The notes below the pieces were generated by a model. It was not told the origin of the DNA. It searched no databases and saw only the letters and a list, made by a program, of their open reading frames with translations. This document shows positions 7,513 to 46,180 of a stretch of DNA of 64,000 nucleotides, piece by piece. The position numbers and the translations under genes were made by a program. Source of the DNA: Warburgia ugandensis (Eukaryota > Streptophyta > Magnoliopsida > Canellales > Canellaceae); contig CP141134.1 of the NCBI GenBank assembly GCA_035236585.1, positions 24,296,414 through 24,360,413 on the forward strand, in the 5' to 3' direction. The first letter of the stretch is position 1. Each line of letters opens with the position of its first letter.

Positions 7513-9092
7513 CTACGCTAATGGAAATAAAGGCAGCATAAATAGGAGAAAAGAGAACCTCTATCAAAGAGTACATTCTATTTGGTAAATACGTGGTTGG
7601 CACATTAGGATTGATCCAAGCTTACATATTGACAAAATGTACATAAGAAAAGATGAACATGCCAACACCAACCCAAAATATCATATCTATAAGAAAAGGT
7701 ATTGCTAAGAACCAATAGAGTGTTCATCATGGTCACTATCAAACCATAATGATGAAGGACTTCCCCAAAGAAATTTTACCAAGCTTGGATTCTCCACCAT
7801 AGGCTCAAGCAGCATGACAACCAAAGCAGTTTACATCTCCATGACAAATGCACACAAGAGTGGATGATGGAGGGTAGTTTGAAGCCCCACAACATCTACT
7901 TAACAAAGGAAGGCCACCAAAGCAGTTCATAACTTCACACAAATCTCACATTAAAGTGCAACTTAAACTGTTTGCAACTCATTAGAAATTGCACGTTGAA
8001 GGGAAATGGGGGCTCCATACAATAACAGTGGCCCCATTTGAAGTACTTAAGAAAAAAAAAAAGGAATGGGAAAATGGGGTTAATTGTGGTGAATCAGAAT
8101 CCTGGATCCTTCATCCATTCCCCTTTCAAAGAACAGACAACTTATCATGTTTGTCCTTAGGGCAGCTGTTGACTGCCTAAATATTTGGGAAAAAGTAAAG
8201 GCCTTACATAAAAAACTTCACAGTAAAAGGACAACTAAAATAGTTCATAGCTTCACAGAAGTTGCATAGTGAAGGACAACCAAAGTAATTTGTATTGCCA
8301 CAACAGTTGCACGATGAAGGGTGCCAGGGCTATTAGGAGCTAAGAGTAATAGTTCTTAGCATTTGCTTAACAAAGGAAGCCATGTAAAGCAGTTCACAAC
8401 TCCACACAAAATGCATGTTGAAGCATAACCAAAACAGTTTGTAGCTAAACAGAAATTACTCTTTGGAGGGCAAGCAAAATAGTTTGTAGGTACACAAAAA
8501 ATGTTCTGTAAAGGGCAATCAAAACATTTCGTAGCTCCATAGAAGTAGCATAGTGATGGGTAACTGAAGCTGTTTGCTACTTCACAAAATGGCATAGTGA
8601 AGCAAAGCCTACGCTATTGGGAAATCTAGAGTAACAGTTCATTAATGGAGGGCAACCAATGTAATTCTCGGATCCACTAGCAGGGGAGTCAAATGAGTGA
8701 GAACACATGTTCTGTTGATGACCATAACTACGTTCTCTTAGAATTACATGGGCCTTTCTTTTGCCTAAAAGAAAAAGTAATGGAGGAATAGTGACTACCA
8801 TTGTCTAAATATTGGTGTGCCAACAAAGCTTGTAAGTTAAAGCAAGGTGTTAAAGGTTCTCAACTTGGCATTTATAATCGAGCAGTCCCAAGTATTAAAC
8901 ATAGTACTATTGATTGTAGCTTTTTGTTTCCTTTTCCTAGAACTTTCTTTTTGCATGAGAAACATTGTGATGAGATATGGGTGATTTTTGTACCCCCGAC
9001 CCATTAGCTAATAGTTTACAAACTATCTAACATGCAGCAGCTTAATGCATGAGTTGGGCTAGACCCCCAAGCTCTCTCTCTCTCTCTCTCTC
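7513..9092 (-). repeat. Array unit 1 (long type)
   Basis: The unit starts abruptly at the edge of the older LTR and ends at a CT tract (9072-9092). It is a long-type unit: the cysteine-rich block occurs twice (about 7828-8330 and 8370-8690), joined by AGAGTAATAGTTCTTAGCA followed by TTTGCTTAACAAAGG. A roughly 200-bp segment (about 8000-8215) replaces about 22 bp of the short units. The minus ORF 8356-8595 (79 codons) is the cleanest cysteine-rich reading frame in this unit. Confidence 0.8.
8356..8595 (-). CDS. Hypothetical cysteine-rich 15-residue-repeat ORF, unit 1
   Basis: 79 codons with cysteines recurring about every 15 residues (CYFYGATKCFDCP, CVPTNYFACPP, CGVVNCF). This is a fragment of the repeat block rather than a complete gene; its Met is internal and its end is a chance stop. 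Such a cysteine density would suit a metal-binding or disulfide-rich protein if translated. The period equals exactly 15 codons of the DNA repeat, so the pattern may be no more than a translated minisatellite. Confidence 0.25.
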   Translation of the reverse strand: MPFCEVANSFSYPSLCYFYGATKCFDCPLQNIFCVPTNYFACPPKSNFCLATNCFGYASTCILCGVVNCFTWLPLLSKC

Positions 9093-10881
9093 GATCAACC
9101 GATTGAGGAATTATATACTGCAATCAACCATTGCCAAGGAAAACATGAACCCAAGAAGAAATGTGTAGGATGGCCGGTATAACGCAAGTGGACAAGCAAA
9201 GACATCTAGAACGGTGTCGAGTCAGTCAAAATGAATACCACTCAGAGCGAACATGATGAAATTGTATAAAATTGCAATTCTGGCAAAAGCTAATGATACG
9301 TACATGATGGTATAGAAATGGTGTGTTTCGGTTTAAAGGTAAAGAGACACTGCACTGATGGAAAGAAAGGCAGGATAAATAGGAGGAAAGAGAATTTCTA
9401 TCAAAGAGTACATTCTGTTTGGGAAATACGTGGTCGGCACATTACGATTGATCCAAGCCTACGTATTAACAAAATGTACATAAGAAAAGATGAACATTCC
9501 AACACCCACCCAAAATATCGTATCTGTAAGAGAAGGCATTGCCTAAGAACCGATAGGGTGTTCATCATGGTCACAATCAAACCAAAAATGACGGACTTCC
9601 ACAAAGAAATTTTACCAAGCTTGGATTCAAGCAGCATGGCAACCAAAGTAGTTTACATCTCCATGGAAAATGCACACATGAGTGGATGATGGAGGTAGTT
9701 TGCAACCCCACAACATCTACTTAACAAAGGAAGGCTACCAAAGTAGTTCACAACTTCACGCAAATTGCACATTGAAGGGCAACTGAAATAGCTTCCAACT
9801 CAACAGAAATTGCATGTTGGAGGGCAAATGGGGATCTATACGGTAATAGTCGCCCTTTTGAAGTACTTTAGAAATAAAAAGTACGAAAAATGGGTTTTCA
9901 AACGGTGAATCAGAACCCTGGATCCCTCATCCATTCCCCTTTCAGAAACAGATAACGTATCTTGTTTGTCCTTAGGGGTAGCGGTTGACTGCCTAAATAT
10001 TTGGATAAAAAACAAAGGCCTTACATAAAAAATTGCACGGTAAAAAGGCAACTAAAATAGTTAACAGCTTCACAAAAGTTGCATAGTGGAGGTCAACCAA
10101 AGCAGTTTGTAACTCCACAGTAGTTGCTCGATGAAGGGCTGACAGGCTCATTGTGAGCTTAAGAGTAATAGTTCTTAGCATCTGCTTAGCAAAGAAATGC
10201 AGGTCGACACAAAATGAACGTTGAAGCATAACCAAACAGTTCGTAGCTTAAACAGAAATTACACTTTCGAGGGCAAGTAAAACATTTTGTATCTCCACAA
10301 AAAATGTGTTGTTAAGGGAAATCAAAACATTTCACAGCTCCACAGGAGTAGCATAGTGACGGGCAACTAAAGATGTTTGCAACTCCACAAAATTGCACGG
10401 TGAAGGGAAGCCAAGGCTACTGTGAGCTCCAAAGTAATAGTTCACTAATGGAGGGCAACCAGTGTAATTCTCAGATCTACTAGAAGGGGAGTCCATTAAA
10501 CAAATGAGAACACATGTTCTGTTGATGACCATAACTCCGTTCTCTTAGAATGATGCAGGCCTTTCCTTTGCCTAAAAGAAAAAGTAATGGAGGAATCGTG
10601 ACTACCATTGTCTTAATATTGGTATGCCAAGAAAGCTTTGGTATGCCAAGAAAGCTTATAAGTTAAAGCAAGGTGTTAAAGTTCCTCAACTTGGCATTTG
10701 TAATCGAGCAGCCCTGAGTACTAAACCTAGTACTATGGATTGTATTTTTTAGTTATCCTTTTCCTCGAACTTTTCTTTTACATGAGAAACATTGTGCTGA
10801 CATATGGGTGGTTTTCGTCCCCCCGACCCATTACCTAATAGATTACAAACTATCTAAAATACAGCAGCTTAATTCGCGAGT
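9093..10881 (-). repeat. Array unit 2 (long type)
   Basis: A long-type unit with two cysteine-rich blocks (about 9627-10150 and 10190-10497) and the same extra segment (about 9825-10035) as units 1 and 5. The CT tract expected near 10870 is missing, and the next unit follows directly. 10638-10662 contains a short local duplication (TATGCCAAGAAAGCTT twice). A plus-strand ORF of 123 codons (9318-9689) covers the part antisense to the non-cysteine segment. Confidence 0.8.
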
Positions 10882-11011
10882 TAAGGAAAACATGAATCTA
10901 AGAAGAAATGTCAAGGATGGCCAGAATAACTCAAGTGGAAAAGCAAAGACATCTACAAGCGAGGGTATAGCCCGCATATTGACAACGTGTACATAAGAAA
11001 AGATGAACATA

Positions 11012-12593
11012 TGTTGATTGTTTACCCTATGTGCACAGGTTACTGTAGTACAGGTTATGCAAGTACAGGTCGATCCCACAAAAACTCGACTAAAAATTTG
11101 GAGTTTAAATAAAATTTAATTGACTGAAAACTAAGATTACCTATAACATTCTCTAATGTGTCATGCATCAAATCATATTCACAAATTTTCTTAATTTAAA
11201 TAAAATAAAATAAAATACTATAGCAACACCTCTTGCTGTGTTTGCAAGTGAGAGTGTCATTAGAAAAGAAGAAGGTAACTAAGATAGTCATATGCGGCCG
11301 CACGCTTGTGACACTAGCTAAGCAGTTATCTTATCCCTATTTACAATCCAAGATTAATCTAGTTTCTATTTACAATCCAAGAACAATTAGAATCCACAGA
11401 GATTTCACTAACCTTGGCAACTAATTTCTTTTACTTTCTAATAGAATTTTTCAATGAAACTTGGTACTTAGAATAATTTGATATCAATAAATTTAATTGT
11501 ATGGTTAGATTTCAAATCAAGATAACAAAAATTAAGATATTTAATCACAAACATAGGCTGTTCACTAACCCACACAACAATACCTTTCAAGATTATTTCA
11601 TAAAATTAAACAAATCTGACCATTAAATCTCAAAATAATTTGTATTAAACTCTTTCTAACTTAAATAAGAATATAAGAAAAGCATTAGGTAATTCAAAAA
11701 CCTATCAAATATACCAAACTAAAGGTGCAAAATTTTAAGTAACTCATTGTTACTATTCATATAAATAGTAGCAAGTAGATAACTTTAACCATTTCAAGTT
11801 AAGAGATTTGGAATGAAAATTGAAAATCAAACACCTGGGTCTTCTTCTTCTTGATGTCTTCTATCCAATGAATCAAATATTAGATATTTTTATTAAGTAT
11901 CAAAGTAGGAACTGGCATACAAAGTACCCCTATTCACTAGCATGTGCATGCACTGTTCATCTTCTTCAACCCCCGTTTCTTTGAATTTTCAAGCTTTTTT
12001 TTTTTTCACTCATCTTCGATATGGTACTTATAGATGATGAAAAGTCCATTTGAATTCAATTTTTAGTAATTTCCACCTCCATTCTCTTTCCTTTTCTCTA
12101 AAGAATTCCAAATCAACTAAATTTCCTAATTTTAACGTAGGAAACTATTTCCTTTTCATCATTTTCACTTTCCATCATTAAACATAAAATCCCTTAGCTA
12201 TTTTTATTCTCTTGTGCTCATAATTTGGATTTGATGCTTGAGGATTGAACTGGGGTCCTTGATTTTGATTTAGATAATCTGGATTGATCTCAGCCATCCA
12301 TTTTAATCTAAAATTGAGGGAGATCTATGAAGTTGATCAACTTGATCTAACTACATGGATCTTGATCTACCACCTACAAAACAAATAAAATAACTTAATT
12401 AGTATTATACAATATTCAATTTTATGCATACTTACCTTGGATCATCATCTAACCATGAAAATTTACCAAAATAAGGTTAGATTATAAAATTTTTATATGA
12501 CATTTTTTTCATATAAATTTCTAATCAATATCTTAAAAATATTCAAAAGTCATGCTAAATGAGTGTAATTTATGTAATAATGGACTCTTAACA
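11012..12593 (-). repeat. 3' LTR of the Athila-like element
   Basis: 1582 bp, TGTTGATTGTTTACC to CTCTTAACA on the plus strand. It aligns with 21391-21468 plus 24480-26009 once the solo LTR is skipped. The GTACAGGTCGATCCC stretch near its left end is, on the minus strand, the GGGATCGACCTGTAC motif common near the 3' end of Athila/Tat-type LTRs. Confidence 0.82.
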
Positions 12594-15500
12594 CAACCCA
12601 ACTAGCATTTTGTTAGGCTCGAGCAAAAAATGGGAAAAATCAAATTACAAAATTAATACAAATTGCTACTTTCATAAGTACTTATGATTGTATTTAGCAT
12701 ATACAACAAGCCTTTGAACCCCTAGGTTACCCATAGTGGACGAGTTAAGGCTTGTGAGGGTTTGCAGTAAATATACCCATAAATTTTCAAAAACCTTTTT
12801 CAAGTGATTTTTCACTTTTCTTCTCAAAGAATTATCTTCAATAAATCTATCAACTTTAGCATATAGAAAAAAATGAATGAAAAATTCAAAACCCTACCCA
12901 TATGTTAAATAGATTCTAATTAAGCTCAGATCTTAGAGTGAGTTTATGTGTATAGTCTACACATAAAATAATCTTTATCTCTAAATAGAATATAACTTTT
13001 GAACTCCATATGAAATATGTTTTGACCTCAATCCTCACTAATAAACATACACTTAAAAATAAAACTCTCGAATAAATGGTTCAAATCATATCTCTCTTTT
13101 AAATATGTGAGCAAAGTTAATAAAAACAAATTTATCTCACATATATTCATGAAGGAATAAAAGTTACTAAGGAATTTAATTTTGAACCCTTTAGAAATGA
13201 TGGCATCACCTTTGAATATTTACAAATACTATTCTTTAAATCCTATCTTTTCATTTCCTCCTCAAGACTATATTCATTCTAGAATCAATAGGTCTTTAAG
13301 TGGGACAAAACATAGGCTTAAGACAGGGTACCAAAGAAAGGTTATAAAAGGTATTCAACATTCTTCAAAAATAAGTGGAGGTCTTCTACTAAATTTGACA
13401 ATTCTTCTTTCCTTGTATTGAAGTGAATATTTATTTTTTAACATTTTTGCATTCTTCAAACTTTTTTTTTTCCCCATCATTTTTTCATTCTTTTCAATAC
13501 TTTTGAATCTCTTTTAAAAACATTTCTTTTCTTAATATTCACTTTTCTACTTTTATTGCAACTGAAATGCATATCTTCATTCATCTTTAACTTATCTTTC
13601 GAAGAAAATAGGTAATGGATAATTTATACTAGTTTAATATGGGTAAAGGTAATTTTGGTGAAATAAGAAAAGACTTATAGAAAAGGCTCAAATTGGCTAA
13701 TTAGTGATAAAAATACTTTTGGGGTAGGCTTTATGTCTCTAGGTTAACAATAAGGATGACCTAAATCCTTTTCTAGGTTGCATATAATCTATGAGATTCA
13801 TTGAACTTTTAGAATTTTAAAGGTAATAGTCTAATAATTTAGGTAATTAGTCAAATTTAAAAATTGTTGGGATCAAATTTTAGTTTAAGTATGATGAAGA
13901 AAATTAAGAACATTTATAACCTTTTAAACAAAATGAATGGCTCTAAAACTCACTTAGGTTATAAGTCTCCATTGAATTTCTTTAGGATCTCTAAATTATA
14001 ACTACTTATCAATTTAGACTAGGTATATGCAATTGTGTACATATGTGATATGAGACTTAGCTTTCATGGAGTACTTTAAAAGATGAGTAAAATGATGAAT
14101 TAATCATGTATAATTTCATTAATAAGATAAAGTTAGCTAGACTATACTTCTAAAAATTCCAATTCTTATCATAGTATAGGAATTGGCTTAAAAACTCCAA
14201 AATTTTAAAATTTTTCAAAAATAGAGAAAAAACTACAAGAAGACTAGAATTCACCAAAATTCTACACCCGGAAACCTAACTGAAACATTGTCCTCAATAT
14301 TTAAAAAGAAGGCTGATGATGTTGTATTGAGAAATGACGAAATGAGAGATGTAGAAAAGAAAGTTCTAAAAAAACTATGGTACATAATTATTACAGATAA
14401 AAAATTTTCAAAGAGAAAAATTTATAGAGTTCGAAACTTCCTTAGGCCCCATACAAAATGAGTTGGACAGGCCTCTAAAAATGAAAGGTGAGTGAATTTA
14501 TCTTGCAATTAAAAAAATTTCATTTTATCACAGGGCAAGGTATTAAATATGTCCATAGGCTGCTTCTCATAATTAGAGACAACTGTGGGAGCTTGATGTA
14601 GCCTTTGTAGAAATGGAACAAGGACGTTATATGACTTAGGGGTGGGATATTTTCCTTATCAATAAAATTATCTCTTTTTCTAACAGATTTTGGTACTATC
14701 TTAGCCTTTTTAGGACCAAATTTCTCAATTATTTTACTGCTATGAAGAATGGTAATTTTCTTTGTTTGTTCTATGTTTGTAAATGAAGAATTAATCTCAC
14801 CTACCACATCCATACCATCAAGGTTTTCATTTGGTGGGATAGGACATTGCCCTTTGTTAATGGTCTACGCATTTTAGAAATCATGTCCTTTAATTTAGTC
14901 ATGTATTCTGAGTTCTCTTTTAATTGGGCTTTAATTTGAGCAATTTTCTTCTCCTGGTATTGCATGAATTGATGAAAGTTATCCTCCACTTCCCTCTTAG
15001 GTAGAGGAAGGTAAGGTTTAGGAGTAAGTAGTCCTTGATTTTGGTGATAGGGTTGGTATTGAGCCTTATGTGAGACATTAGCGCTATATCTATTTCTCTA
15101 ATTGAAAGTAGGATAATTACTCCAGTTGGAATTATGTTTCTCAAGATGAAAAAAAAATGTTGCTCATGAAAATGTGCCTATTCATGAAGTGCATCCTAAA
15201 ATGAAGGAGCAATTAGACATTTCTAAGTGGGATGTGTATTACTTTCACAAATATTAACACCTGTTCAATTTTCTTAGAGATTTTTTTTTTTCTCCATTTC
15301 CATGGCCTCAACTGTTCTAGCTAGGGATGCTATTTTAGTATTCATATCATCTTTTTCAGTCATAGCATATATTCCTCCCTTAGTGGATGTGGTGGTGGAC
15401 TTGGGCTTGTTTGGATAACCTACTTTTTTGAACCAGTCCAAGTTTGTGTACCCTCTTCTAGCCATTCCAAATACTATTGTGCCTCTTCAAGTTGTTTATT

Positions 15501-16795
15501 TAAGAAATTGACATTGCATATCATTTCAACAAACTAACACATATCAAAATTAAGTCCTTCATTAAAGAAGTTAATGATATGCCAAAGTTCGTATTCATGA
15601 TGAGGACAAGTTAACAATAAATCCTTGAATCTTGCCTAGCATTGGTAGAAATTTTATTTATCATTATGGGAAAATTCATTATATTTTAATGAACAGTATT
15701 TATCTTGTGTATATGAAAGAACTTTTTCAAGAACTTAGTCATTTCTTGTCAGGTTCATATGGAATCTGCTAACATTGAATGTAAAATAAAATGAAAATAG
15801 TTTTTGTCTTATTATGTGTAATTTGATGTTTTGTGTATGTTGGGTCATGCACACTTCATTGAATTTTTTTAAAAGCAGGTAATGACTCTCACTATCCAAC
15901 CCATAAAAGTAATTGAATTACTCCCACCTTTAATTCAATCATGCCAACATTTTGAGGTAAAATTATACATAAAAGTGTGCTGGTATAATTAGGCTATACA
16001 TTGTCTCTTAATGTTCTTCCATGATGATTTTGAGTATGCTAATTATCCTCATGTGCTCTATTTTGATTCCATTCCTTGTTATAATTCCTTCTCTTATTTT
16101 CAGGTGGTGGAGAATGATACCTCCATGAATGTATGTTATCATTAAATAGCGGAGGAGAATCGTCAGCATCAAAGAGAGGATTGTTCGTCTATAAAGAAAC
16201 ATCATCATTATCCAGGATGAGAGGTGGTTTATTATCATTAAAGAGGGGATTATTCCTCTATGGGTAAATATCATCTTTGTTAATGTTAGGGTGTAGATTA
16301 CCCCTTTGATCGGTGTTTAGATTATTCATTGGATGCAATTGATCATGTCGTTTCTTTCTTCTTTTTTTTGTGAAGAAAACTACACTAAATGATGCAACCT
16401 AATGTCTAAAGTGATGCACAAATAAAGGACACCATCAAACAATCCCTAAGGTTAACAAGCTAAAATGTTTTGATTTTCTTGAATTTGTGTAGGGGAGAAG
16501 GCTTTAAATTAACCTAATCTGACACTCCTCTCTTTCAAACTTGACTACTGCTTATCAGTTAGGTTCTGCTCTAAAGTAGTTAACACAATTCTCGTGTTAG
16601 GAGGAATTTAGACCTCAACCGACATCAACGAAAGGCGTGAAAAAGTTACTTGGATTTTAAGACATCCACTGTAACCATAGTGCTCTAAAGCCACTGGAGT
16701 AACAATAGATATCGTCCTTTTAATAGGGTCCTGGGAGCATGTGATGACCTCTATAGGTCTCTTCTAATTAATTTTAAATAAAATAGGAAGTTTGG
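12594..16795 (-). other. Internal region of the Athila-like element, mostly non-coding
   Basis: Apart from the gag-like stretch (14520-15465) this is AT-rich and shows no recognisable pol domain on either strand. Minus ORF 16008-16274 and plus ORF 13182-13421 match no family I know. Confidence 0.5.
14520..15465 (-). pseudogene. Broken gag-like region of the Athila-like element
   Basis: Three minus-strand open stretches (15274-15465, 14801-14989 and 14520-14813) look like the later part of an Athila/Tat gag: a GGIYAM.. segment followed by a helical stretch (NTKIASLARTVEAME), then KKIAQIKAQLKENSEYM and related heptad-like sequence. These elements usually have such a coiled-coil region after the capsid part. 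The region is broken, and no protease or pol follows to the left before the 3' LTR. The call is by pattern only. Confidence 0.5.
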
Positions 16796-17379
16796 TGTAA
16801 CAGCCCGGGGTTTCCACAGTGTGATATTGTTCGCTCTGGACACAGCCTGCACGATTTTAAAATGTGTCACAACTATTTGAGATTCACCGACTCTTATCAA
16901 CAGCCCAATTACTTTTTCCTTAGCGATGTGGGACTAACTCTCAGTCCCTCTCCACCTTCGTCCCCTCAGACCATCTTGGTCTGTTGCCTCAGACTATCTT
17001 GGGGCCTCCCCCTCAAGCCATCTTGGCTCACCCTCAGGCCATCTTGGCAGACGGCAACGGGTTCACCTCTCCCCCTTAGGGGACACGCATCCGTGCATGC
17101 GGTTAGCTACCCACCATTGGGTTAGGGGTTGGCTCTGATACCACTGTAACAGCCAGGGGTTTCCACAGTGTGATATTGTTCACTATGGGCACAGCCCTCA
17201 CGGTTTTAAAACGTGTCACAACTGCTTGAGATACCTCGACTCTTATCAACAGTCCAGTTACTTTCCCCTTAGCGATGTGGGAATAACTCTCAGTCCCTCT
17301 CCACCTTCGTCCCCTCAGACTATCTTGGTCTGTTGCCTCAGACTATCTTGGGGCCTCTCCATCAAGCCATCTTGGCTCA
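16796..17379 (-). mobile_element. TRIM unit A (minus strand)
   Basis: LTR (17145-17379), a roughly 114-bp internal region and LTR (16796-17030), read on the minus strand. The primer site at 17131-17143 (plus GGCTCTGATACCA, minus TGGTATCAGAGCC) matches the initiator tRNA-Met type used by many plant LTR elements and TRIMs. The internal region has no ORF. ORFs at 16862-17125 and 17226-17462 are the same LTR sequence read twice, not genes. Confidence 0.8.
17131..17143 (-). promoter_or_regulatory. Primer binding site of TRIM unit A
   Basis: The reverse complement is TGGTATCAGAGCC, the tRNA-iMet-type primer site, directly next to the LTR that starts at 17145. Confidence 0.8.
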
Positions 17380-17429
17380 CTCTTAGGCCATCTCGGCAGA
17401 CGGCAACGGGTTCACGTGCTGAGGGTGAG

Positions 17430-20071
17430 TGTGACGACCCGGGTTTTCTCATGCATTTTTAAATGCAATATCTAATTTCCTAAGGCGGGATGCATCCCTA
17501 TTTGAAAACCATTCTATAAAAACCATGCAATGCAGCAAAAAACCTTTAGTTTTAAACTCATTTTTTTGAAAACCCCGGGTGTCATTTGCCTTCACAACAA
17601 CCAAAGTAGTTTTTGAAAAACTTCAGAAATCATAAATATTTTTCCCCAGGTCTTTCCAGTCACAGCACACAGCCCAACTATAATGAAATACAACTTCATG
17701 TCCAAAGGGTTGAGAGTTTACTTACATGTATAACTTTCTTCTTTTTGATTTACTTGCTCATAGCACTAATATCTCCTGAGACGTCTTCTATTTATGAGTG
17801 GAACTATCCTGAAAAATGTTAAGGATAGGGTGAGTATATATTATACTCAGTAGGAGCCTATCACTACTAGTTTTATAATGCATGAGATGTTTTAAAATCA
17901 TATGCTCATTCAAAACATGTGCATGCCTAAATACTCAAGCTCAATATCACTATAAGAATCTGTTATCAAACTGAAATACTAATGACTTAAAGGATCGCAT
18001 AACCCAAAATTGAAAGTATCATATACATATATATATAATAACATCATGATATGCAATAGATGCTTCATGGAGTCCAACTCATGGATCTCTAGTATGGTAT
18101 GGTTGACCAACCTCATATTATGCTATATGAAATGCACATAAATCATCAAACCATAGGGTCCACTATGCCCACGACCTCCTCGCCGTGTGGTCCCTGGGTA
18201 CCTGAGGACACTCGGTCATAGCCTCCACAGGGCCTATGACACGTCGACCCAGTGCCGTGACACCAGTGGTAGCCCCCTGTACCACATGCAATCGACGTAG
18301 GGACTTGCCTCTTTTTAGGCGTGGTACTCATCCACCTAATAGTGGTAGAGGCCGGGTGGCCAACCCAGACCCCTCGGCATAGCACCCACGGGCTTACTCG
18401 CCCAAATCACATAAGATCAAATAAGCCAAAACCTCTTTTCAAAACATGTCCTCTTTGGTTCCCTCACAACTGCCTGGCCCTCGGCACTCCAGCGTCTTTT
18501 GGCAACCCTCAAGGACATGCAATTTTTGCAAGTACTTAAATCATGCAATGTATGCACTTGTTTTACAAAACATATATGTGCATAATGTATATGTAATCAT
18601 TTACAAAACATTTCTATGTACAAAGCATTTATCACATGCATGCTGAATTAAGTCATGCTAAACCAGTCATATACTTAAAACATATATTATCAAAACAATA
18701 ATAGTTCTTTTAAAAGAATCTAATAGTGATAGATCACCTACCTGGCTAGGTCGTGCTAACCCTTTTGTCCTCGGACGCTCCTGATCATGGTTTGGGGAAT
18801 CAAGGTTAGTTTGGCCTATCTTTTATGGGTTTTGGAGTAATTGTTCTAATTACTTAGGCATTAGGGGTCCATCCCTATGCCTGTGGGTGTCCTAAGGTCC
18901 TAATTGGGCCTCGGTGTCCTCAGTTTTCCAAAGTTCTAATGGTCACGCGCTACCATCCAATTCTAAGGGTCATGCCCACCTTTGATTGGGCCTTAATAAG
19001 AGATTTTATAGTTTGGATGTGTCCACGCCATCGACATGGACACAACGCCTTTTGCGGCACCTCAATCGGAGCTCTAGATCTCAAGTTATAAGTATTTCAG
19101 TGTTGTATGTACACAGAGTCTTAAAAATGAAAAAAAAAAAAAACGGAATGCTAGGGCGCTGCGCGACTGCGTCGTGCGCCTTGGCTTCCTTAAAGAACGG
19201 AAAAAACGACGCACTACTATAGCATTGCTTGTCTGCGGCATGCGCCTCAGCGGGCACGTCTGCAGATGCGCGGTACTCTTCGCCCGTCTTCCTCTTTAGC
19301 GGGGGCGTCTACGAACGCGCCTGTTGGTTTCCTCTCAGACGCGTTCGACGCGTCTCGTCTGTCTGGGGCGTCCTTGGGATGCCCTGGTTCGTCCCTGAGG
19401 AACCAGTGCGGCCCTGGGGACGTCCCAGGGTCCTTGGTGACTCCCTAGAGGCCTATTCCCCATGGATTTTCATGCGAAAACCTAGGGAAACTGAACCTAG
19501 GACTATGGGTGAGATGGGTTTGGGGAGTTTTTGGGCGTATCTGCTTTGTGGCTGGTTTTCTCTCCACATTTTCTCCTCTTGGTTACTGTTCCTCAACGGT
19601 TTTTCTTCAATGTTTTGGGCTGCCATTAGAGGCGCCTAAGAGCTCTATTTATAGAGCTAAGAGAGGGTTCTGGAGGGGGCTCTCACCGCCTTTGAATGGC
19701 AGTGGACAAACCTCCAAAATGGTGGTGATTTCTCCTCCAATCACCACCGTTCTAGAACCCTCTAAAGGTTGAAGATGAAGGGGTGCCCGTATCAAAATGG
19801 GCCCCTGTGTTTTTGCAGTTAAATCCGTTTTTGTAAAAATTACAATTTTGCCCCTGAACTTCAAAGGGCCATAACTTGCTCATTTTAACTCCGTTTTGGG
19901 TGATTTTGGTCTCGTTGGATTCCTTTTTTTGAGATACATCTAATGGAACTATTTTTTAGGGCCAAATTCCTGGGTTCAGTCAAGGTGAATAGTGAAATGA
20001 CTAAAATGCCCTTATCTTCAAAATTGAACTTTTCATGGGATTTTAATATTACAAAAATTGGGGTCATTACA
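17430..20071 (-). mobile_element. Solo LTR, Ty3/gypsy type, target duplication GTGAG
   Basis: 2642 bp. On the minus strand it runs TGTAATGACCCCAATTTT to CCCGGGTCGTCACA, the same end style as the other chromovirus-like LTRs here. GTGAG occurs at 17425-17429 and 20072-20076. No internal region is present. A GC-rich block lies at about 19150-19480. ORFs within it (19229-19639, 18146-18385 and others) match no family and are treated as chance. Confidence 0.88.
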
Positions 20072-20072
20072 G

Positions 20073-20656
20073 TGAGCCAAGATTGATTGAGGGGGAGGCC
20101 CCAAGATAGTCTGAGGCAATAGACCAAGATGGTCTGAGGGGACGAAGGCGGGCAGGGATTGAGAGTTAGTCCCACATCGCTAATGGGAAAGTAACTACGC
20201 TGTTGATAAGAGTTGGGGAATCTCAAACAGTAGTGACGCATTTCAAAACCATGCGGACTGTGCCCAAAGTGGACAATATTACACTGTGGAAACCCCGAGC
20301 TGTTATAGTGGTATCAGAGCCAACCCTTGACCCGATGGTGGGTGGCTAACCGCATGCGCGAACGCGTGTCCCTTAAGGGGGAGAGGTGAACCCATTGCCG
20401 TCTGCCAAGATGGCCTAAGGGTGAGCCAAAATGGCTTGATAGGGAGGCCCTAAGATAGTCTGAGGCAACAGACCAAGATGGTATGAGGGGATGAAGGCGG
20501 GGAGGGACTGAGAGTTAGTCCCACATCGCTAAGGGGAAAGTAACTAGGTTGTTGATAAGAGTCGGGGAATCTCAAATAGTAGTGACGCATTTTAAAACCG
20601 TGTGGACTGTGCCCAGAGCGGACAATATCACACTGTGGAAACCCTGGGCTGTTATA
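20073..20656 (+). mobile_element. TRIM unit B (plus strand)
   Basis: LTR 20073-20307, internal about 114 bp, LTR 20422-20656. The primer site TGGTATCAGAGCC lies at 20309-20321, one base after the first LTR. The unit is near-identical to unit A in inverted orientation. The end reads TTATA where the family end is TTACA. Confidence 0.8.
20309..20321 (+). promoter_or_regulatory. Primer binding site of TRIM unit B
   Basis: TGGTATCAGAGCC, the tRNA-iMet-type site, follows the first LTR with a one-base gap. Confidence 0.8.
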
Positions 20657-20661
20657 GTTGG

Positions 20662-25379: not shown

Positions 25380-25382
<3 letters not shown>

Positions 25383-29441: not shown

Positions 29442-29694
29442 TGTCAAAGAACACAATTGTGAAATATATTTTCTGATGATTTCATTCATTGTTATTCTAT
29501 AATATATAGAATACGTATGAGGTACATTTACAAGGAAAGAACAATTTACATGTAAAGAACAATCTAAGTAATTACAAAATAATACCTACTAATAATACAA
29601 GAAATTATGAATAAGAAATATCCTATAATTAAGAGAGAAATAAAGGCAACTGCTGATTAAGAAGGTTGACTATTTCAAACCCTTAATTTTGGAA
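29442..29694 (-). repeat. 3' LTR of the copia element
   Basis: About 253 bp, TGTCAAAGAACACAATTG to about CTTAATTTTGGAA on the plus strand. A C-rich stretch follows at once (minus strand AACTTGAGGGGGG, the polypurine tract). Confidence 0.9.
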
Positions 29695-29884
29695 CCCCCC
29701 CTCAAGTTGGAGCATGGATATCACACATGCCTAACTTGCCTAAAGAATCATAAAAAACATTGCTAGCTATAGCTTTGGTAAGAACATCAGCTAGTTGATC
29801 TTTAGACTTCACAAAAGGAACTATAATGATCCCAGTTTCAACATTTTCCTTAATGAAGTGTCTATCAACTTCTGCATGCTTTGT

Positions 29885-30091
29885 TTAATCTTGTTGAACT
29901 AGACTGCAGGCTATCTTCACAGTTGAAGTGTTATCACAATACAACTTCATTGCATCTTGAGAGTCAACACACAAATCCTTTAGCAAGTTCCTCAACCATA
30001 GCAACTCACACACTCCAAAAGCCATGCCTCTATACTCAGCTTCGGCACTCAATCTTGCTACTACTGATTGCTTTTTATTCCTCCTAGTCAC
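29885..30091 (-). pseudogene. Copia RNase H region
   Basis: Contains the copia RNase H signatures KKQSVVARLSAEAEYR and LYCDNTSTVKIA. It lies at the 3' end of pol, about 190 bp from the 3' LTR. It is part of a broken polyprotein. Confidence 0.85.
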
Positions 30092-30292
30092 AAGGTTTCC
30101 CCCTACAAAAGTAAAGTATCCTGAAGTAGATCTTATATTATCAGTTGAACCCTCCTAATTTGCATCAATGTAACCTTCTACCTTCAGGTGATTATGCTTG
30201 GTGAAAAGTAACCCTTTATTAGCAGCAAACTTCAAATTCCTCAATATACATTCTACAACATCCATATGAGGTTTACGGGGATCAAGCATAAA

Positions 30293-31190
30293 CTAGCTCA
30301 CTACACACACTGCATAAGCAATGTTTGGCCTAGCGTGAGACAAATAAATCAGTTTTTCAACAAGTCTCTGGTATCTTATCTTATCAGTAGAAGTTGCATC
30401 CAAACATTGAAACAACTTATGATTTTGTTCAATAGGAGTATTCTCAGGCTTACATCCAAGCTTACTTGTTTCAGTTAACAAATCAAGAATGAATTTCTGT
30501 TGAGATAAAAAAAATACCATTCTTTGATCGAGCTACCTCAATCCCAGGAAAGTACTTCAAGTAATCAAGTTATTTCATTTCAAATTTTGAGGTCAAGTGT
30601 TGCTGTAAGCTCTCAATTTCATCTTGATCATTACATGTTACTACCATATCATCAACATAAATAACCAAAGCAATAATTCTTCCCTTTCAGTGCTTTAAAA
30701 ACAAAGTGTGATTTGAATTGCTTTATTTATAGTCAAAGTTTTTCATAGACTTGGTGAATCTTCCGAACCAAGCTCTTGGAGATTACTTTAACCCATACAA
30801 TGCCTTATTGAGTTTGTGCACCATTGTAATATTTGAGTACTTTTGTATACTCGGAGGATGATTCATATACACTTCTTCTGCAAGATCTTCATGCAAGAAA
30901 GCATTTTTTACATCAAATTGAAGAAGTGGCCAATCTCTGTTAACTGCTAAAGACAAGAGCACTCTAATTTTATTAAGCTTGGCAACTAGTGCAAAAGTGT
31001 CTTGATAGTCAATCCTATAAGATTGTGTATACCCTTTTGCAACTAATCGAACTTTGCACCTTTCAATGGCCCCATTTGCCTTATGCTTGATTGAAAACAC
31101 CCATTTACATCCCATGATCTTCTTTTCCTTTGGTATAGGCACAAGTTCCCAAGTAGCATTCTTTTCAAGTGCTGCTATTTCTTTTGCCAT
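30293..31190 (-). pseudogene. Copia reverse transcriptase region
   Basis: The N-terminal part has WELVPIPKEKK, GCKWVFSIKHKANG, RLVAKGYTQ, LLQFDVKNAFLH and KLNKALYGLK, all standard copia RT blocks. The C-terminal part (about 30293-30520) has LLTETSKLGCKPENTPIE and the usual RT to RNase H connection. The region is broken. Confidence 0.88.
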
Positions 31191-32243
31191 GGCTTGGGTT
31201 CATCTAGCAGCTACTAATGCTTCTTACATTTTACTAGGAATAGAGACAGATGATGACTGTAGCACAAAGACGCATATGACTTGGACAATTTTTGGGAAGA
31301 CACATTATCACTAATGGGATATCTAGCTTTGGATTTAGGATCAGGCTCATATTTAATGGGTGGTTTACCATGGTTAGAACAAGCTAGAAGATGATATTGA
31401 GACAATCATGATTCAAAATAACAACATCAATAATCATAGAATTAGGATTAATGGGTACCTCTAAAGGAGTCTCAGGAAAACATTGGCCTAGTTGTTGCGT
31501 TGGTTTGTTAGGAGACATTGTACTATCATAAAAAGAGTCATCTTCAGCATTTGAAGTCATTGTTTCAGCAATTAGGGACCTTTGTCCTTCATTCGGTTGA
31601 TCATTGGTATCACTTTTCGTCGTCCAGAACAAATTCGAGACGAAATCTTCATTTGTAAATTCACTAGTCATCCATTTTTCTTCCTCTAGTCGTTATGTAG
31701 TAGACAACCGATCCAATTCATTCGTTCGACCATTAGTATCATTTTTAGTCTTCTGGATATTAGAAAAATCCAAATCTTTGAGAAAAAATGCTTGTAGTTC
31801 TTTATGATTAATCATTTCTTCTTGATTCTCCCCCTGAAGTGGTAAATCAGTAGTTGGTGGCCTGTAGAAAAGTTCTTTCTCATGAAAAATAACATCCATG
31901 GAAACATAAAACCTCTGAGAAGATGGATCATAACACTTGTAGCCCTTTTGATTGATTCTATATCCCAAAAAAGTACACTTCTAAGCATGAGACTCAAGCT
32001 TAGTCCATTGATGTGGATGTAAGTGGACATACACTAGACACCCAAAAATTTGAGGAGCCAAAAGTACCTAGGTGGAAGAGTACAGTGATAAAAAAGAGCA
32101 TCCAATGGTCTTCTAAAATGGAGAACACTAGATGGTGTACGGTTTATTAAGTAAACCGCCGAATTCAAGGCTTCACCTCCAATCAAAAGAGACTGAGTAA
32201 CTTCTAATAATTGTCTATTTTTTTGCTCTGTAACACCATTTTG

Positions 32244-32709
32244 TTAAGGAGAATAAGGACATGTTGTTTGGTTAATAATCCCAACTGAGTGAAAGTATTC
32301 TGTCAATTCTTGCTTGAAGTATTCACCCCCATTATAGGAACGAAGAACTTTTATTAGAATGTTAAACTGAGTGGTTACCATTTGATGAAAGGAGCAAAAA
32401 ACTGAGCAAACATCACTCTTGTGCTTCAGTTGATAAACCCAAGTCATCCGAGTGCAATCATTAGCAAAAGTTACAAACCACCTCATACCATTAAGAGTAG
32501 AAATTGGTGTCGGTCCCCAAACATCTAAATGAACTAATGAAAAAAGGGAGATTTGCTTTATTATCACTCAAATGGAAAATAGTATGGTGACTTTTTGCCA
32601 TTGCATAAGTTTCGCAAATAAAATCTGAAAAATTACACCCCCTAAATAAAGAAGGAAATAATCTTCTAAGATAGCTAAAAGAGGGATGTCCTAGTCTCCT
32701 ATGCCACAA
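32244..32709 (-). pseudogene. Copia integrase region
   Basis: Pre-integrase WHRRLGHPS and core motifs such as HLDVWGP, FVTFANDCTRMTWVY and LRSYNGGEY identify a copia integrase. It is part of the broken polyprotein. Confidence 0.85.
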
Positions 32710-32753
32710 CCAAATTTTCTCCTTTTTTTATTTACCAAATCTTCCTCCACCAA

Positions 32754-33590
32754 TTAAGCTTTCCTTTTCCTGTTAGAATATTTGAACCCATCCTCCAAAT
32801 AGTACAATCTTCTATGTTGTCTACCACTGCCAATCTTCTCCTTGGTATAGATGTTCTGAAAAACACAATGAGTGGGAAAAAATAGAGCAACACAATTATG
32901 AAATTTGATTAATTGATTAACAAAGATAAGATTACAATTTAATGATGACATAAATAAGAACTCTTTGATAGCTAAGGAGGGGGATAATGAGATTGTACCA
33001 ACTCCAATAACTGGAGATGATACACCCTTGGCATTGGTAATGGTAGATTTGGAACATTTACGGGATAAGTGAGTGAACCTATAACGATCACAAGTCATAT
33101 GGTCCATTGCACCAATGTCAATTATCCAATTACTATTTCCAATAAAAGACATACCTGACTTCGCAGTAAATCTAGGAGTTGTGGCTAAATTCCCCTTTGG
33201 ATTGGTGTCCTCCTCCTTAGCATTCAAAGACACCTGAGACGCCTTCTTGCCCTTTGGATGCCAATCTGGATATCCATGGAGTCGAAAGCATGTATCCACC
33301 GCATAATCAATATCATTACAATAAGTACATTTTCGATCCTTTTTTGATGTAGCCCTTTTTTGAAAGGCCATTACAGCCCCTTCTCCAATCTTTTCTCCAA
33401 GCATAGTATCTTGACGATTACCTTCCATACAAACCATAGCATAAAGGGCTTGTATATTTGGGAGAGGTTTGGTAGCAAGTATGCGACCTCGAACCCAATC
33501 TAATTGAGAATTAATCCCAGCCAAAAACATATACACATGTTGGGAATTAACCTTAGTGGTATATTTTACAATATCATTATCACACTCCAT
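32754..33590 (-). pseudogene. Copia gag-protease region
   Basis: 278 open codons. The gag C-terminal half (FLAGINSQLDWVRGRILATK) leads into a zinc-knuckle-like CTYCNDIDYAVDTCF stretch followed by RLHGYPDWHPKGK, then the protease active-site region (WIIDIGAMDHMT). More gag sequence continues toward the 5' LTR (about 33600-34050). Confidence 0.85.
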
Positions 33591-34204
33591 TGTACAGTCA
33601 TCAATATCATCAAGTTTCTGCCATATTTTTTGTAGTTTGCCAAAATAAGAAATAACAGAACCTCCATTCTAGCAGATAGAAATTACCTTGTAGTGTAATT
33701 GATAAACTTTTGATGCATCCTCATAGACTGAATATGTTCGTTTGACCGCCTCCCATATTTCCTTTGCCATAGCCAACCGAAGAAAAAGATATCTAATGTC
33801 TTTTGTCTTTGCATCAAGAAGTCATGATTTGACTAAGCAGTTTTCATTCTCCCATGCTTCATATTACTCCAAATGAACGTCTATTGGTGCAGCCTTCGTA
33901 CCTGAAATAAAACCCCAACGTTTCCTCCCGCGGATCTTATTTTGAGCATTCAAAGACCATTTAATATAATTGATACCATCAAGTCGTTCTAGTGTGATTA
34001 GAGAAGTTTCTTGCATATAGAACCCAGCCAATATAGTAGTAGGTTCATTCTTCTAGAGAATCATTCCCACTTTCTTTTAAATCAATCATAGTGGAAAAGA
34101 CACTAAAAAAGAATTTTGCAGCGGAATGATATGAACAGAAACAAAAATTGTAAACACATGATCAAAACTCAATTCCTAGGGTAAAGAAGAGGAGATTGAA
34201 CCAT

Positions 34205-34216
34205 GGTCTAATACCA
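34205..34216 (-). promoter_or_regulatory. Primer binding site of the copia element
   Basis: The minus strand reads TGGTATTAGACC directly after the 5' LTR, resembling the tRNA-iMet-type site. Confidence 0.8.
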
Positions 34217-34451
34217 TGTCAAAGAACACAATTGTGAAATGTATTTTCTAATGATTTCATTCATTGTTATTCTATAATATATAGAATACGTATGAGGTAC
34301 ATTTGCAAGGAAAGAACAATCTAAGAAATTATAGAATAATACCTACTAATAATATAGGAAATAATGAATACGAAAAATTCTATAATTAAGAGAGAAATAA
34401 AGGTAACTGCTGATTAAGAAGGTTGACTATATCAAACCCTTAATTCTGGCA
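34217..34451 (-). repeat. 5' LTR of the copia element
   Basis: 235 bp, TGTCAAAGAAC to TTCTGGCA on the plus strand. It is shorter than the 3' LTR because of one 18-bp indel. Confidence 0.9.
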
Positions 34452-34874
34452 TCCACAAAATTGCACAATGAAGGGAAGCTAAGGTTATTAGGAGCTCCAA
34501 AGTAATAGTTCAGAGAAGGAGGGCAACCATTGTAATTCTTGGATCCACAAGAAGGGGAGTCCATTAAACGAAAGAGAACACATGTTTTGTTGGTGAACAT
34601 AACTCCATTCACTTAGAATGATGCGGGCCTGTCTTTTGCATAAAAGAGAAGGTAATGGAGGAATACTGACCATCATAGTTTTGATATTGGTATGCCAAGA
34701 AAGCTTCTAAGTAAAAGCAAGGTGTTAAAGTTCCTCAACTTCCTCAGTCTTAAACCCGGTACAATTGATTGTTGCTTTTTTCTTTTTCCTTTTCCTAGAA
34801 CTTTCCTTTTGCATGAGAAACACAGTGCTGAGATTGGATGATTTTTGTCTCCACGAGTTGGTCTACGTCCCCAA

Positions 34875-36185
<1,311 letters not shown>

Positions 36186-37522
36186 TGATCATGGAATTAT
36201 ATACAACAATCAACCATTACCAAGGAAAACATAAATCCTATAGAAAATGTCTAGGATGGTCAGAATAAAGCAAAGACATCTAGAACGCAGTAGAGTCAAT
36301 TAAAATGAATACCACATAGGGCGAATGTAGTGAAATTGAACAAAATTGCAATTCTTACAAGAACTAGTGCTACACCCACGATGGTATATAAATGGTGTGT
36401 TTCAGTTCAAAGGTCAAGAGACATAGCACTGATGGAAATAAAGGCATCATAAATTGGAGGAAAGAGAACACTTCTATCAAAGAGCATAAACTATTTGGGA
36501 AATACGTGGTTGGCACACGAGGATGGATCCAAGCACACATATTAACAAAGTGTACATAAGAAAAGATGAACACGCTAGCATCCATCCAAAATATCATATC
36601 AATTAGAGAGGGTATAGCATGAGTACAGTGACAATATTCATTAGGGTCACAATCAAACCAAAAACGACAAATGACTTTGGTAAAGAAATTTTACAATGCT
36701 TAGATTCTTCCCCATAGGCTGAGGCAGCACGGCAACCAAAGCAGTTTACATCTCCACAGTAAATGCACACAGGATTGGATTGTGGAGGGCAGTTTGTAGC
36801 CCTACAGCATTTGCTTAACAAAGGAAGGAAGCCAAAGAAGTTCATAACTGCACACAAAATGCATGTTGAAGCGTAATCAAAATAGTTTGTAAGTCAACAT
36901 AAATTGCACATTGGTGGCAAGCAAAACAATTTGTAGCTGCACGAAAAATGTGTAGTAAGGGTTAATCAAAATAATTCACAGCTCCACACAAGTTGCATAG
37001 TGAAGGGCAACCAAAGTAGTTTGTAACTTCATAGTAATTGTACAACGAAGGGCAGCCAAGGCTATTGGAAGCTTAGAGTAATAGTTCATTAATGGAGGGC
37101 AACTAATGCAATTCTCAGATCCACAAGAAGGGAGTCCATTGTAGAATAAACAAATGAGAACACCAGTTCTGTTAATGAACATAGCTTTGTTCTTTTGGAA
37201 TGATGTGGGCCTTTCATTTGCATAAAAGAAAAAGAAATGGTGGAAAACTAACTACCATAGTTTTGATATTGATAAGCCAGGAAAGCTTGTAAGGCATGGT
37301 ATTAAAGTTCCTTGACTTGCATTTACAATCGAGCCAACCCGAGTCCTTAACCTGGTACAATTGATTGTAGTTATTTGTTTTCCTTTTCTTAGAACTTTCC
37401 TTTTGCATGAGAAACACTGTGCTGAAATGTGATTGATTTTTGTCCCTCCAATCCATTAAGTAACAGTTTCCAAACTTTCTAACATGTAGCAGCTTAAACC
37501 ACGAATTGGACTACACCCCCAT

Positions 37523-37561: not shown

Positions 37562-37564
<3 letters not shown>

Positions 37565-37976
37565 TAGAGGAATTATATACAGCAATCGACCATTACCAAG
37601 GAAAACATGAATCCGAGATGAAATGTCTAAGATGGTTGGAATATATGCAAGTGGACAAACAAAGACATAAAGAACGTGGTAGAGTCGGTTAAAATGAATA
37701 CCACAGAGAGAACGCAGGGAAATTGAACACAATTGCGTAATTCTTACAAAAGCTAGTGCTACACCCATGATTAGAAACGGTGTGTTTCAGTTCAAAGGTC
37801 CAGAGACGCTACGTTGGTAGAAATAAAGGCATCATAAATTGGAGGAAAGAGAATTTCTATCAAAGAGCACATTCTGTTTGGAAAATACATGATTGGCACA
37901 CTAGGATCGATCTAAGTACAAATATTGACAAAGTGTACATAAGAAAAGATTGACATGTCAACACCCACCCAAAATA

Positions 37977-38249
37977 TCATATCAATAGGAGAGGGTATAG
38001 CATGAATACAGAGAGAGTATCCATCAGGGTCACAATCAAACCAAAAATGTCAAATGACTTCGGTAAAGAAATTTTACGAAGCTTGGATTCTCCACCATAG
38101 GCTGAAGCAGCATGACAACTAAAGCAGTTTACATCTACATAGTAAATGCACACGGGAGTGGATGATGGAGGACAGTTTGCTTCCCCATAGCATTTGCTTA
38201 ACAAAGGAAGGCAGCCAAAGCAGTTCCTAACTCCATACAAAATGTACAT
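37977..38249 (-). CDS. Hypothetical cysteine-rich plus hydrophobic-tail ORF, unit 8
   Basis: 90 codons: cysteine-rich repeats (GVRNCFGCLPLLSKC, ANCPPSSTPVCIYY, DVNCFSCHAAS), then ESKLRKISLPKSF and the hydrophobic FGLIVTLMDTLSVFMLYPLLL. It is the longest of five ORFs with this layout (units 4, 6, 7, 8 and 10). If real it would be the downstream half of a cysteine-rich protein with a membrane segment. It is also compatible with a frame left open by chance in a repeat. Confidence 0.3.
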   Translation of the reverse strand: MYILYGVRNCFGCLPLLSKCYGEANCPPSSTPVCIYYVDVNCFSCHAASAYGGESKLRKISLPKSFDIFGLIVTLMDTLSVFMLYPLLLI

Positions 38250-38345
38250 TTAAGCGTAACCAAAACAATTTGTAGGTCAACAGAAATTGCATGTTGGAGG
38301 ACAAGCCAAGCAGTTTGTAGCTCCAGAAAAAATGCACGGTAAAGG

Positions 38346-38609
38346 TCAATCAACATAGTTCACAACTCCACACAAGTTGCATAGTGAAGGGCAACCAAAG
38401 CAGTATGTAATTCCACAGTCATTGCACGATGAAAGGCAGCCAAGGGTATTGGGAGCTTCAAAGCAATAGTTCATTAATGGAAGGCAACCGGCGCAATTCT
38501 CGGATACACAAGAAGGGGATTCCATTGTAGAATAAACGAATGAGAACACTCGTTCTGTTGATGAATATAGCTTAGTTCTCTTGGAATGACGTTGGCCTTT
38601 CATTTGCAT
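38346..38609 (-). CDS. Hypothetical cysteine-rich ORF with natural-looking start, unit 8
   Basis: 87 codons. The second Met begins MESPSCVSENCAGC and is followed by exact 15-residue repeats (CLSSCNDCGITYCFG, CPSLCNLCGVVN). It lies upstream (on the minus strand) of 37977-38249 in the same unit and belongs to the same repeat block; the two are separated by a short broken stretch. MDSP or MESP starts recur in units 2, 3, 4, 5, 7 and 8. Confidence 0.3.
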   Translation of the reverse strand: MQMKGQRHSKRTKLYSSTERVFSFVYSTMESPSCVSENCAGCLPLMNYCFEAPNTLGCLSSCNDCGITYCFGCPSLCNLCGVVNYVD

Positions 38610-38902
38610 AAAAGAAAAAGAAATGGAGGAAAATTAACTACCATAGTTTTGATATTGGTATGCAAGGAAAGCTTATAAGGCAAGGTATTAAAGTTCCTTG
38701 ACTTGGCATTTATAATCGAGTCAGCCCGAGTCTTAAACTTTGTCAATTGATTGTAGTTTTTTGTTTTCCTTTCCTAGGACTTTCCTTTTGCATGAGAAAA
38801 CCTCTGCTGAGATGTGATTGATTTTTGTCCCTCCAATCCATTAAGTAATAGTTTACAAACATTCTAACATGCAACAGCTTAATCCATGAGTTGGACTAGA
38901 CC

Positions 38903-39911
<1,009 letters not shown>

Positions 39912-40035
39912 AGGAGAATTTGATGTTTGGGATGTTTCGCACTTAGTGCTTTGAATTTATTGTCATCAGATTATAAGTTCATTCCATACCAAACCAAGCG
40001 GCTCAGAGGGTTGAGGTGAGATAGTGCATCAATCT
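39912..40035. other. Filler sequence at an array rearrangement
   Basis: About 120 bp unrelated to the array unit separates truncated unit 9 from unit 10, which starts midway (AAAGAGCACATTCTATTTGG). This suggests deletion plus insertion of outside DNA during repair. I do not recognise its source. Confidence 0.5.
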
Positions 40036-41084
40036 CCAGCTCAAAGAGCACATTCTATTTGGGAAATACGTGGTTGGCACACAGGGATTGATACAAGCCT
40101 ACATATTGACAAAGTGAATTTAATAAAAGATGAACAGACCAATACCCACCCAAAATATCATATCAATAAGAGAGGGTATAGCAGGAGAACTAAGAAAATG
40201 TTCATCATGACGAAGGACTTTACCATAGAAATTTTACAAAGATTGGATTCTCCACCATAGGCTGAAGTAGCATGGTGACCAAAGCACTTTACATCTCCAC
40301 AGCAACTGCACACATGAGTAGATGATGGAAGGCAGTTTGCAACTCCACAGCATTTGCTTAACAAAGAATGGTAGCCAAAGTAGTTCACAACTCCACGCAA
40401 ATTGCACGTTGAAGCATTACCGAAACAGTTTGTAGTTCAATAGAAATTGCATGCTTGAGGGCAAGCAAAACAAATTGTAGCTCTCCAAAAAATGTGCGAT
40501 AATGGCAAACAAGATAGTTCACAGCTCCACAGAAGTTGTATATTGAAGGGCAACCAAAGTAGTTTGCAACTCCACAACAATTTCACTATGAAGGGCAGCC
40601 AAGGTTACTGGGAGCTCAAGAGTAATAGTTCAACAATGGAGCACAACAAGTGCAATTTTCGAATCCACAAGAAGGGGAGTCCAGTGTGGAATAAACGAAT
40701 GGGAATCCATGTTCTATTGACGAACGTAGCTCTGTTCTCTTTCAATGACACGGGCCTTTCTTTTGCTTAAAAGGAAACAGATGGAGGAAAACTGACTACC
40801 AAAGTTTTGTTACCCGCATGCCAAGAAATCTTATAAGTGAAGACAAGTTAAAGTTCCTCGACTTGGCATTTCTAATTGAGCTGGTCAGTCTTAAACCTGG
40901 TACAATTGATTGTAGTTTTTTGTTTTCCTTTCCTAGGCTCTTTCCTTTTGCATGAGAAAGACTGTGAAAAGACGTGGCTGATTTTTGTCCCTCTGATCCA
41001 TTGCTAACAATTTACAAACTATCTAACCTGCAGCAGCTTACTCCACAAGTTGGACTACACCCCCATGTTCTCTCTCTCTCTTGA
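40036..41084 (-). repeat. Array unit 10 (short type, 5' part missing)
   Basis: About 1.05 kb. The cysteine-rich block is at about 40260-40690. Minus ORF 40158-40400 repeats the layout of cysteine-rich repeats followed by a hydrophobic end. It ends in a short CT tract (41070-41083). Confidence 0.85.
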
Positions 41085-41461
41085 TCATGGAATTATATAC
41101 AACAATTGAATGTTATCAAGGAAAACATAAATCCAATAAAAAAATGTCTAGAATGGTCAAAATAGACCCAAGTGGACAAGCAAAGACATCTAGAATATAG
41201 TAGAATCGGTTAAAATGAATAACACAGAAAAGTATTGAAATTGAACAAAATTGCAATTCTTATAAAAGCTAGTGCTACACACACGATGGTATATAAATGG
41301 TGTGTTTCAGTTCAAAGGTCAAGAGACACTCGCTGATGGAAATGAAGGCAACACAAATTGGAGGAAAGAGAACACTTCTAACAAAGAGCACAAGCTAATT
41401 GGGAAATACGTGGTTGGCACACTAAGATCAATTCAAGCACACATATTGACAAAAGTGTACA
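41085..41461 (-). repeat. Array unit 11 (truncated), right edge of the array
   Basis: It follows the standard unit to ATATTGACAAAAGTGTACATAA and then changes to unrelated sequence, so this is the right end of the array. Confidence 0.8.
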
Positions 41462-46175: not shown

Positions 46176-46180
46176 ATGAT

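What the first reader, a model, noticed from the sequence alone, without database searches (positions are those of the whole stretch)
7513..41461. Unrecognised tandem array of about eleven 1.2-1.8 kb units, possibly gene-derived
Once the nested transposons are set aside, about 14 kb of head-to-tail units remain, each with the same order of segments. The unit matches no satellite, transposon or gene family I know. It predates at least three LTR insertions and probably continues to the left of the window, since the LTR ending at 7512 is inserted in it.
Basis: seen in the sequence. Interest (0 to 1): 0.75.

Follow-up and report, generated by a model that had tools for sequence, protein, structure and literature searches.

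The report
Decayed single-site tandem DNA array
About a dozen old, worn copies of one 1.36-kb DNA segment lie head to tail at one place in this genome, broken up by later jumping genes; it looks like leftover duplication rather than a working gene family.

Summary
The array is real: 13.9 kb of head-to-tail units in the window (eleven units, several partial; 1,356-bp consensus, minus strand), plus one split unit to the left, so about -18,022 to 41,464, and a diverged fragment at 52,614-52,920. Four nested insertions, three with LTR pairs, interrupt units with 5-bp target-site duplications (one with a mismatch). In five searches of the 1.12-Gb genome every returned match lies at this locus, against a dispersed transposon or genome-wide satellite. 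The unit holds 45-bp repeats crossed by a Cys-rich frame, but tests show no coding constraint: dN/dS-like 0.97, 23 of 27 deletions frame-breaking, open frames no longer than in shuffles, a TGA in 9 of 9 units with bases there. C-to-T change is concentrated at CG and CHG sites, as expected of methylated plant repeats. Best reading: an old single-locus tandem duplication decaying without constraint. Descent from a lost Cys-rich gene is not excluded. Ordinary in kind; low interest.

The parts
7513..9069 (-). Unit U01 (unit nt 1 to about 1108; the rest lies left of the window beyond the insertion ending at 7512), with an extra segment of about 0.2 kb and duplicated internal repeats
9102..11011 (-). 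Unit U02 and a truncated stub of the next unit (10,883-11,010); same kind of extra segment as U01 (K2P 0.139)
11012..26009 (.). Nested LTR-type insertion (LTR pair about 11,084-12,602 / 24,474-26,019, K2P 0.19); target-site duplication ACATA/ACACA (4 of 5 bases, by eye); holds further nested repeats
26010..26794 (-). Unit U03 (partial)
26824..28112 (-). Unit U04, near full length
28133..29441 (-). Unit U05, part left of the insertion at 29,442
29442..34451 (-). Nested Copia-type LTR retrotransposon (RVT_2, rve, SH3_retrovirus and Pol_BBD matches in separate frames; LTR pair of about 250 bp); TCCAC on both sides
34452..34856 (-). Unit U05, remainder
34978..36167 (-). Unit U06
36188..37521 (-). 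Unit U07
37562..38906 (-). Unit U08 (first reference unit)
39024..39899 (-). Unit U09 (unit nt 468-1351), followed by 141 bp of non-unit sequence
40041..41065 (-). Unit U10 (unit nt 1-1054)
41084..41464 (-). Unit U11 (unit nt about 972-1354), right end of the recognisable array
52614..52920 (-). Diverged fragment (63% identity) matching unit nt 12-306; 52,500-53,300 returned only itself in the genome

Best explanation
An old tandem duplication array at one locus of what is most likely a plant genome. A local stretch of about 1.36 kb, holding a GA/CT microsatellite and internal 45-bp repeats, was duplicated head to tail by unequal exchange, some later steps copying blocks of more than one unit. 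The array was hit by retrotransposons and has been decaying without detectable constraint, with methylation-type mutation. Shown: array, single-locus result of the searches, insertions with target-site duplications, neutral divergence, CG/CHG-biased C-to-T change. Inferred: unequal exchange, methylation, absence of function, plant host.
For: Units in one orientation and order. All returned matches lie on contig C9 between about 24.278 and 24.338 Mb: 30 of 30 (unit DNA), 30 of 30 (frame), 12 of 12 and 14 of 14 (flanks), 31 of 31 at E up to 10 (repeat frame). Closest pairs suggest block duplication: U06/U10 K2P 0.131, U07/U11 0.132, U01/U02 0.139; median over 61 row pairs 0.24. Codon-position change rates 0.110, 0.147, 0.119, against 0.12-0.16 and 0.09-0.10 in the two flanks; dN/dS-like 0.97. 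Gap runs not a multiple of three: 23 of 27 in the frame region, 30 of 39 in flanks. C-to-T change 107 of 416 at CG, 137 of 656 at CHG, 309 of 3890 at CHH; each against CHH p below 1e-19 by Fisher.
Against: No transcript, methylation or population data. The genome searches score only their best candidates (5), so copy counts are lower bounds. An ATG in a good start context opens the Cys-rich frame in 6 of 10 rows that reach that codon and in the left unit, which a purely non-coding origin does not predict. LTR divergence of two insertions (0.17, 0.19) exceeds that of the closest unit pairs (0.13), so some duplication or conversion may be as recent as those insertions. CpG observed/expected of the array (0.36) is only slightly below the window right of it (0.41). 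The mutation-bias control is mixed: TE0 LTRs and a 3-kb repeat pair show CG and CHG excess, TE2 LTRs a clear CG but only slight CHG excess (0.22 against 0.17), TE3 LTRs none, with 6 CG and 10 CHG sites.
Confidence: 0.72

Rival explanations
1. The units are remnants of a tandem family of a small lineage-specific gene for a Cys-rich protein of about 180 residues with 15-residue repeats (minus strand), amplified and then lost, or amplified when already a pseudogene.
For: The consensus frame runs from an ATG with A at -3 and G at +4 through about nine 45-bp repeats to a hydrophobic end, with two in-frame TGA in 182 codons. Cys positions also recur in the divergent first and last repeats (by eye). 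dN/dS among nine internal repeats is 0.52 in this frame.
Against: Units diverge neutrally. TGA at codon 83 in 9 of 9 units with bases there (one more is gapped, the left unit lacks that repeat), and TGA at codon 23 in 4 of 8 rows with bases, plus the left unit. In 48 of 200 column shuffles of seven core repeats the ratio is as low; second, not third, codon positions vary most; another minus frame is lower, 0.335. Longest open frame of the consensus (115 codons, plus strand; 99 in the Cys frame) lies within 300 mononucleotide shuffles (median 89, 95% 131). No Pfam match, PDB only at E 0.88 or none, and no match elsewhere in the genome at E up to 10.
Confidence: 0.2
2. The unit is part of a transposable element or a retrotransposon-derived satellite.
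For: Retrotransposon-derived tandem repeats are a known source of plant satellites (PMC7004042, abstract, outline and passages). The array is full of nested elements.
Against: Insertions interrupt units and bring their own target-site duplications. No unit match returned outside this locus, whereas element-derived repeats would be dispersed. No Pfam match for the Cys-rich frame.
Confidence: 0.05
3. The array makes a functional non-coding RNA, for example small RNAs.
For: A TATATAA stretch near the end of the unit on the minus strand, before the GA tract, in 7 of 8 rows that reach it (by eye).
Against: No Rfam match at gathering score in 7,000-54,000. Flanks and frame drift at similar rates.
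Confidence: 0.03

Closest known systems
Long-monomer, chromosome-specific plant satellites and macrosatellites (potato centromere repeats of Gong et al. 2012: details recalled, seen only as a citation in PMC7004042)
   Same: Head-to-tail long units at one locus, amplified from other genomic sequence.
   Different: About 12 units, strongly diverged (median K2P 0.24), not homogenised, broken by insertions; centromeric location not tested.
Degenerate tandem gene clusters
   Same: One orientation, one locus, unit of gene size with an ATG-started frame.
   Different: No match elsewhere in the genome, in-frame stop shared by units, no protein family match, no coding signature.
Retrotransposon-derived tandem repeats (PMC7004042)
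   Same: Tandem units among retrotransposons.
   Different: Units are interrupted by the insertions and no dispersed source copies were returned.

Membership tests
Tandem satellite / macrosatellite array | Head-to-tail units in one orientation | tested here: met
   unit matches on the minus strand in one order
Tandem satellite / macrosatellite array | Long, homogenised array | tested here: not met
   About 12 units, median K2P 0.24 over 61 row pairs
Genome-wide satellite | Many loci | tested here: not met
   All returned matches of five searches at one locus; counts are lower bounds
Transposable element | Dispersed copies | tested here: not met
   None returned elsewhere
Protein-coding gene cluster | Open reading frame under purifying selection | tested here: not met
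   dN/dS-like 0.97, shared TGA, frame-breaking gaps
Protein-coding gene cluster | Coding history of the founder, read from the internal repeats | tested here: inconclusive
   dN/dS 0.52, but 48 of 200 column shuffles as low and another frame lower
Protein-coding gene cluster | Intact orthologue in relatives | not testable with these tools
   No relatives of this genome held
Structured RNA array | Match to a known RNA family | tested here: not met
   0 matches at gathering score, window 7,000-54,000

The most novel reading that the evidence does not exclude
The array is the graveyard of a lineage-specific gene for a small protein built of 15-residue Cys-rich repeats (about C-N-F-C-G-A-x-N-C-F-G-C-P-S-x), of a kind that matched nothing in Pfam or the PDB here, which expanded at one locus and then died out completely in this genome.
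Probability: 0.18. Interest if true: 0.4.

Novelty: new member of a known kind. Interest (0 to 1): 0.2.

Why it matters
It is a clean example of an old single-locus tandem array with recognisable insertions and mutation-biased decay, useful for ordering duplication against transposon insertion. It does not point to a new system. It would matter more if the Cys-rich frame proved to be a living gene in a relative.

Tried and rejected
Rejected: transposon or genome-wide satellite; known RNA; known protein family (PDB search listed two endothiapepsin sequences at E 0.88, and none for the profile); prokaryotic relative (a 59-aa piece of the frame: 69 pattern stretches, none confirmed); working coding array. 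The plus strand also has a long P/Q-rich frame through the 45-bp repeats; its internal-repeat dN/dS was 1.53 (plus frame 0), so I did not take it as coding; its own-genome search did not complete.

A search for the rest of the unit beside the 52.6-kb fragment gave nothing (score 15, 60 shuffles up to 20). BLAST also listed a 47-bp match at 66,523-66,569 (E 0.008, plus strand) that the profile did not list; I take it as chance. A literature search for the peptide motif found 9 papers, 8 listed, on arthritis or autoimmunity, with only the shortest term matched (titles and abstract starts). A search for the species by assembly size gave 0 papers. Searches on satellites and macrosatellites were seen as listings only. 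Of PMC7004042 I saw abstract, outline and passages. Structure prediction was not run.

Weak points: in the MAFFT alignment (12 rows; its output was cut in the middle) the duplicated internal repeats of U05a are partly misaligned (K2P 0.655 to U05b, two parts of one unit, is an artefact), which adds noise. No row was dropped; U11 lies outside the frame; the left unit was not in the alignment. The LTR control is mixed (see evidence against).

Full report
What is there. The window is G000:C9:24,296,414-24,360,413 of a 1,122,538,268-base genome in 14 contigs, 55-106 Mb long. The host is inferred, not shown, to be a plant: Copia-type element, C-to-T bias at CHG sites and neighbouring gene remnants. 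Self-comparison shows a family of direct repeats; mapping with one unit, the consensus and a profile resolves them into eleven units (five near full length: U02, U04, U06, U07, U08; the rest truncated or split), net 13,944 bases. Each of 10 shuffled windows gives 0 hits.

Anatomy. On the minus strand the 1,356-bp consensus has 388 bp of flank before an ATG, about nine 45-bp-type repeats, and a further part ending in a TATATAA stretch (7 of 8 rows that reach it). A CT/GA tract of variable length lies between many units: 7 perfect runs of at least 8 bases, up to 113, in 7,000-42,000. U01, U02 and U05 carry an extra segment of about 0.2 kb and duplicated internal repeats. The nearest relatives are not always neighbours: U06 resembles U10 and U07 resembles U11 (K2P 0.131, 0.132), as expected if blocks of units were duplicated.

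Limits. Stretches fetched on both sides were searched from -139,999 to 124,000 in window coordinates, with a more sensitive pass on the left flank and on 41,400-64,000. Further unit sequence was found only at -18,022 to -17,303, -10,215 to -9,964 and -9,943 to -9,691, all minus strand, and as a diverged fragment at 52,614-52,920 (profile E 1.6e-15). A query of 52,500-53,300 returned only itself.

Insertions. Four insertions interrupt units, with target-site duplications read by eye: about -17,302 to -10,215 (CATAA), -9,690 to 7,512 (CTACG), 11,012 to 26,009 (ACATA against ACACA) and 29,442 to 34,451 (TCCAC). LTR pairs were found for the first, third and fourth, with K2P 0.17, 0.19 and 0.07; I did not identify an LTR pair for the second. 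These units predate the insertions. Because the closest unit pairs (0.13) are less diverged than two LTR pairs, some unit duplication or conversion may be of similar age or younger.

Copy number. Five own-genome searches returned only this locus: 30 of 30, 30 of 30, 12 of 12, 14 of 14 and 31 of 31 matches. The tool states that such counts are lower bounds.

Is it gene-derived? The minus-strand Cys-rich frame is the best candidate: 182 codons from an ATG with two TGA in the consensus. Against coding: change rates at codon positions 0.110, 0.147 and 0.119; 167 synonymous, 454 non-synonymous and 18 stop changes, a dN/dS-like ratio of 0.97, stops at 0.73 of the synonymous rate; TGA at codon 83 in 9 of 9 units with bases there, so the founder unit very likely had it; 23 of 27 gap runs in the frame region not a multiple of three; open-frame length within shuffles. 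For coding: the ATG in 6 of 10 rows and a ratio of 0.52 among internal repeats, but 48 of 200 column shuffles of the core repeats are as low and another minus frame is lower. No Pfam family matches. I conclude that the units were probably not working genes when they multiplied; whether the founder descended from a gene stays open.

Decay. Relative to the consensus, C-to-T change is 26% at CG (107 of 416), 21% at CHG (137 of 656) and 8% at CHH (309 of 3890). Among comparison pairs, the first insertion's LTRs and a 3-kb repeat pair show the same excess, the third insertion's LTRs a CG but hardly a CHG excess, and the fourth's none on few sites. CpG observed/expected is 0.36 in the array, 0.41 right of it and 0.60 in the third insertion. 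This is the pattern expected of methylated plant repeats (established knowledge; methylation itself not measured).

Verdict. A real, unlabelled, apparently single-locus relic tandem array; ordinary in kind.

Noticed in passing
window 54,000-56,700, minus strand: Degenerate remnants resembling a sugar transporter (Sugar_tr E 0.0052 and 0.16, both under Pfam's cut-off).
   Followed up: partly
window about 62,400 to L013:6952 (window about 70,950), minus strand: Probable exons of a La-related protein gene: La domain E 9.1e-06 (under cut-off) and PAM2 E 3.6e-05 (above cut-off) in L013; an Arg/Gly-rich last exon near 62,400-62,680 read by eye.
   Followed up: partly
window 16,796-20,658: Inverted pair of about 580 bp (88.9% identical), each arm with two direct repeats spaced about 350 bp; possibly a DNA transposon. 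Six open frames within it gave no Pfam match at E 0.1.
   Followed up: partly
window 674-3,658 and 21,468-24,474; about -6,935 to -4,006 (in L011): Three copies of one LTR-like repeat of about 3 kb (89-94% identical); the pair at -6,935 and 675 has K2P 0.04.
   Followed up: partly
window 43,904-46,183 and 58,401-60,481: Two related sequences (74-76% identical); the second overlaps frames with RVT_1 (E 1.2e-07) and, under cut-off, Exo_endo_phos_2 matches, so probably a LINE.
   Followed up: no
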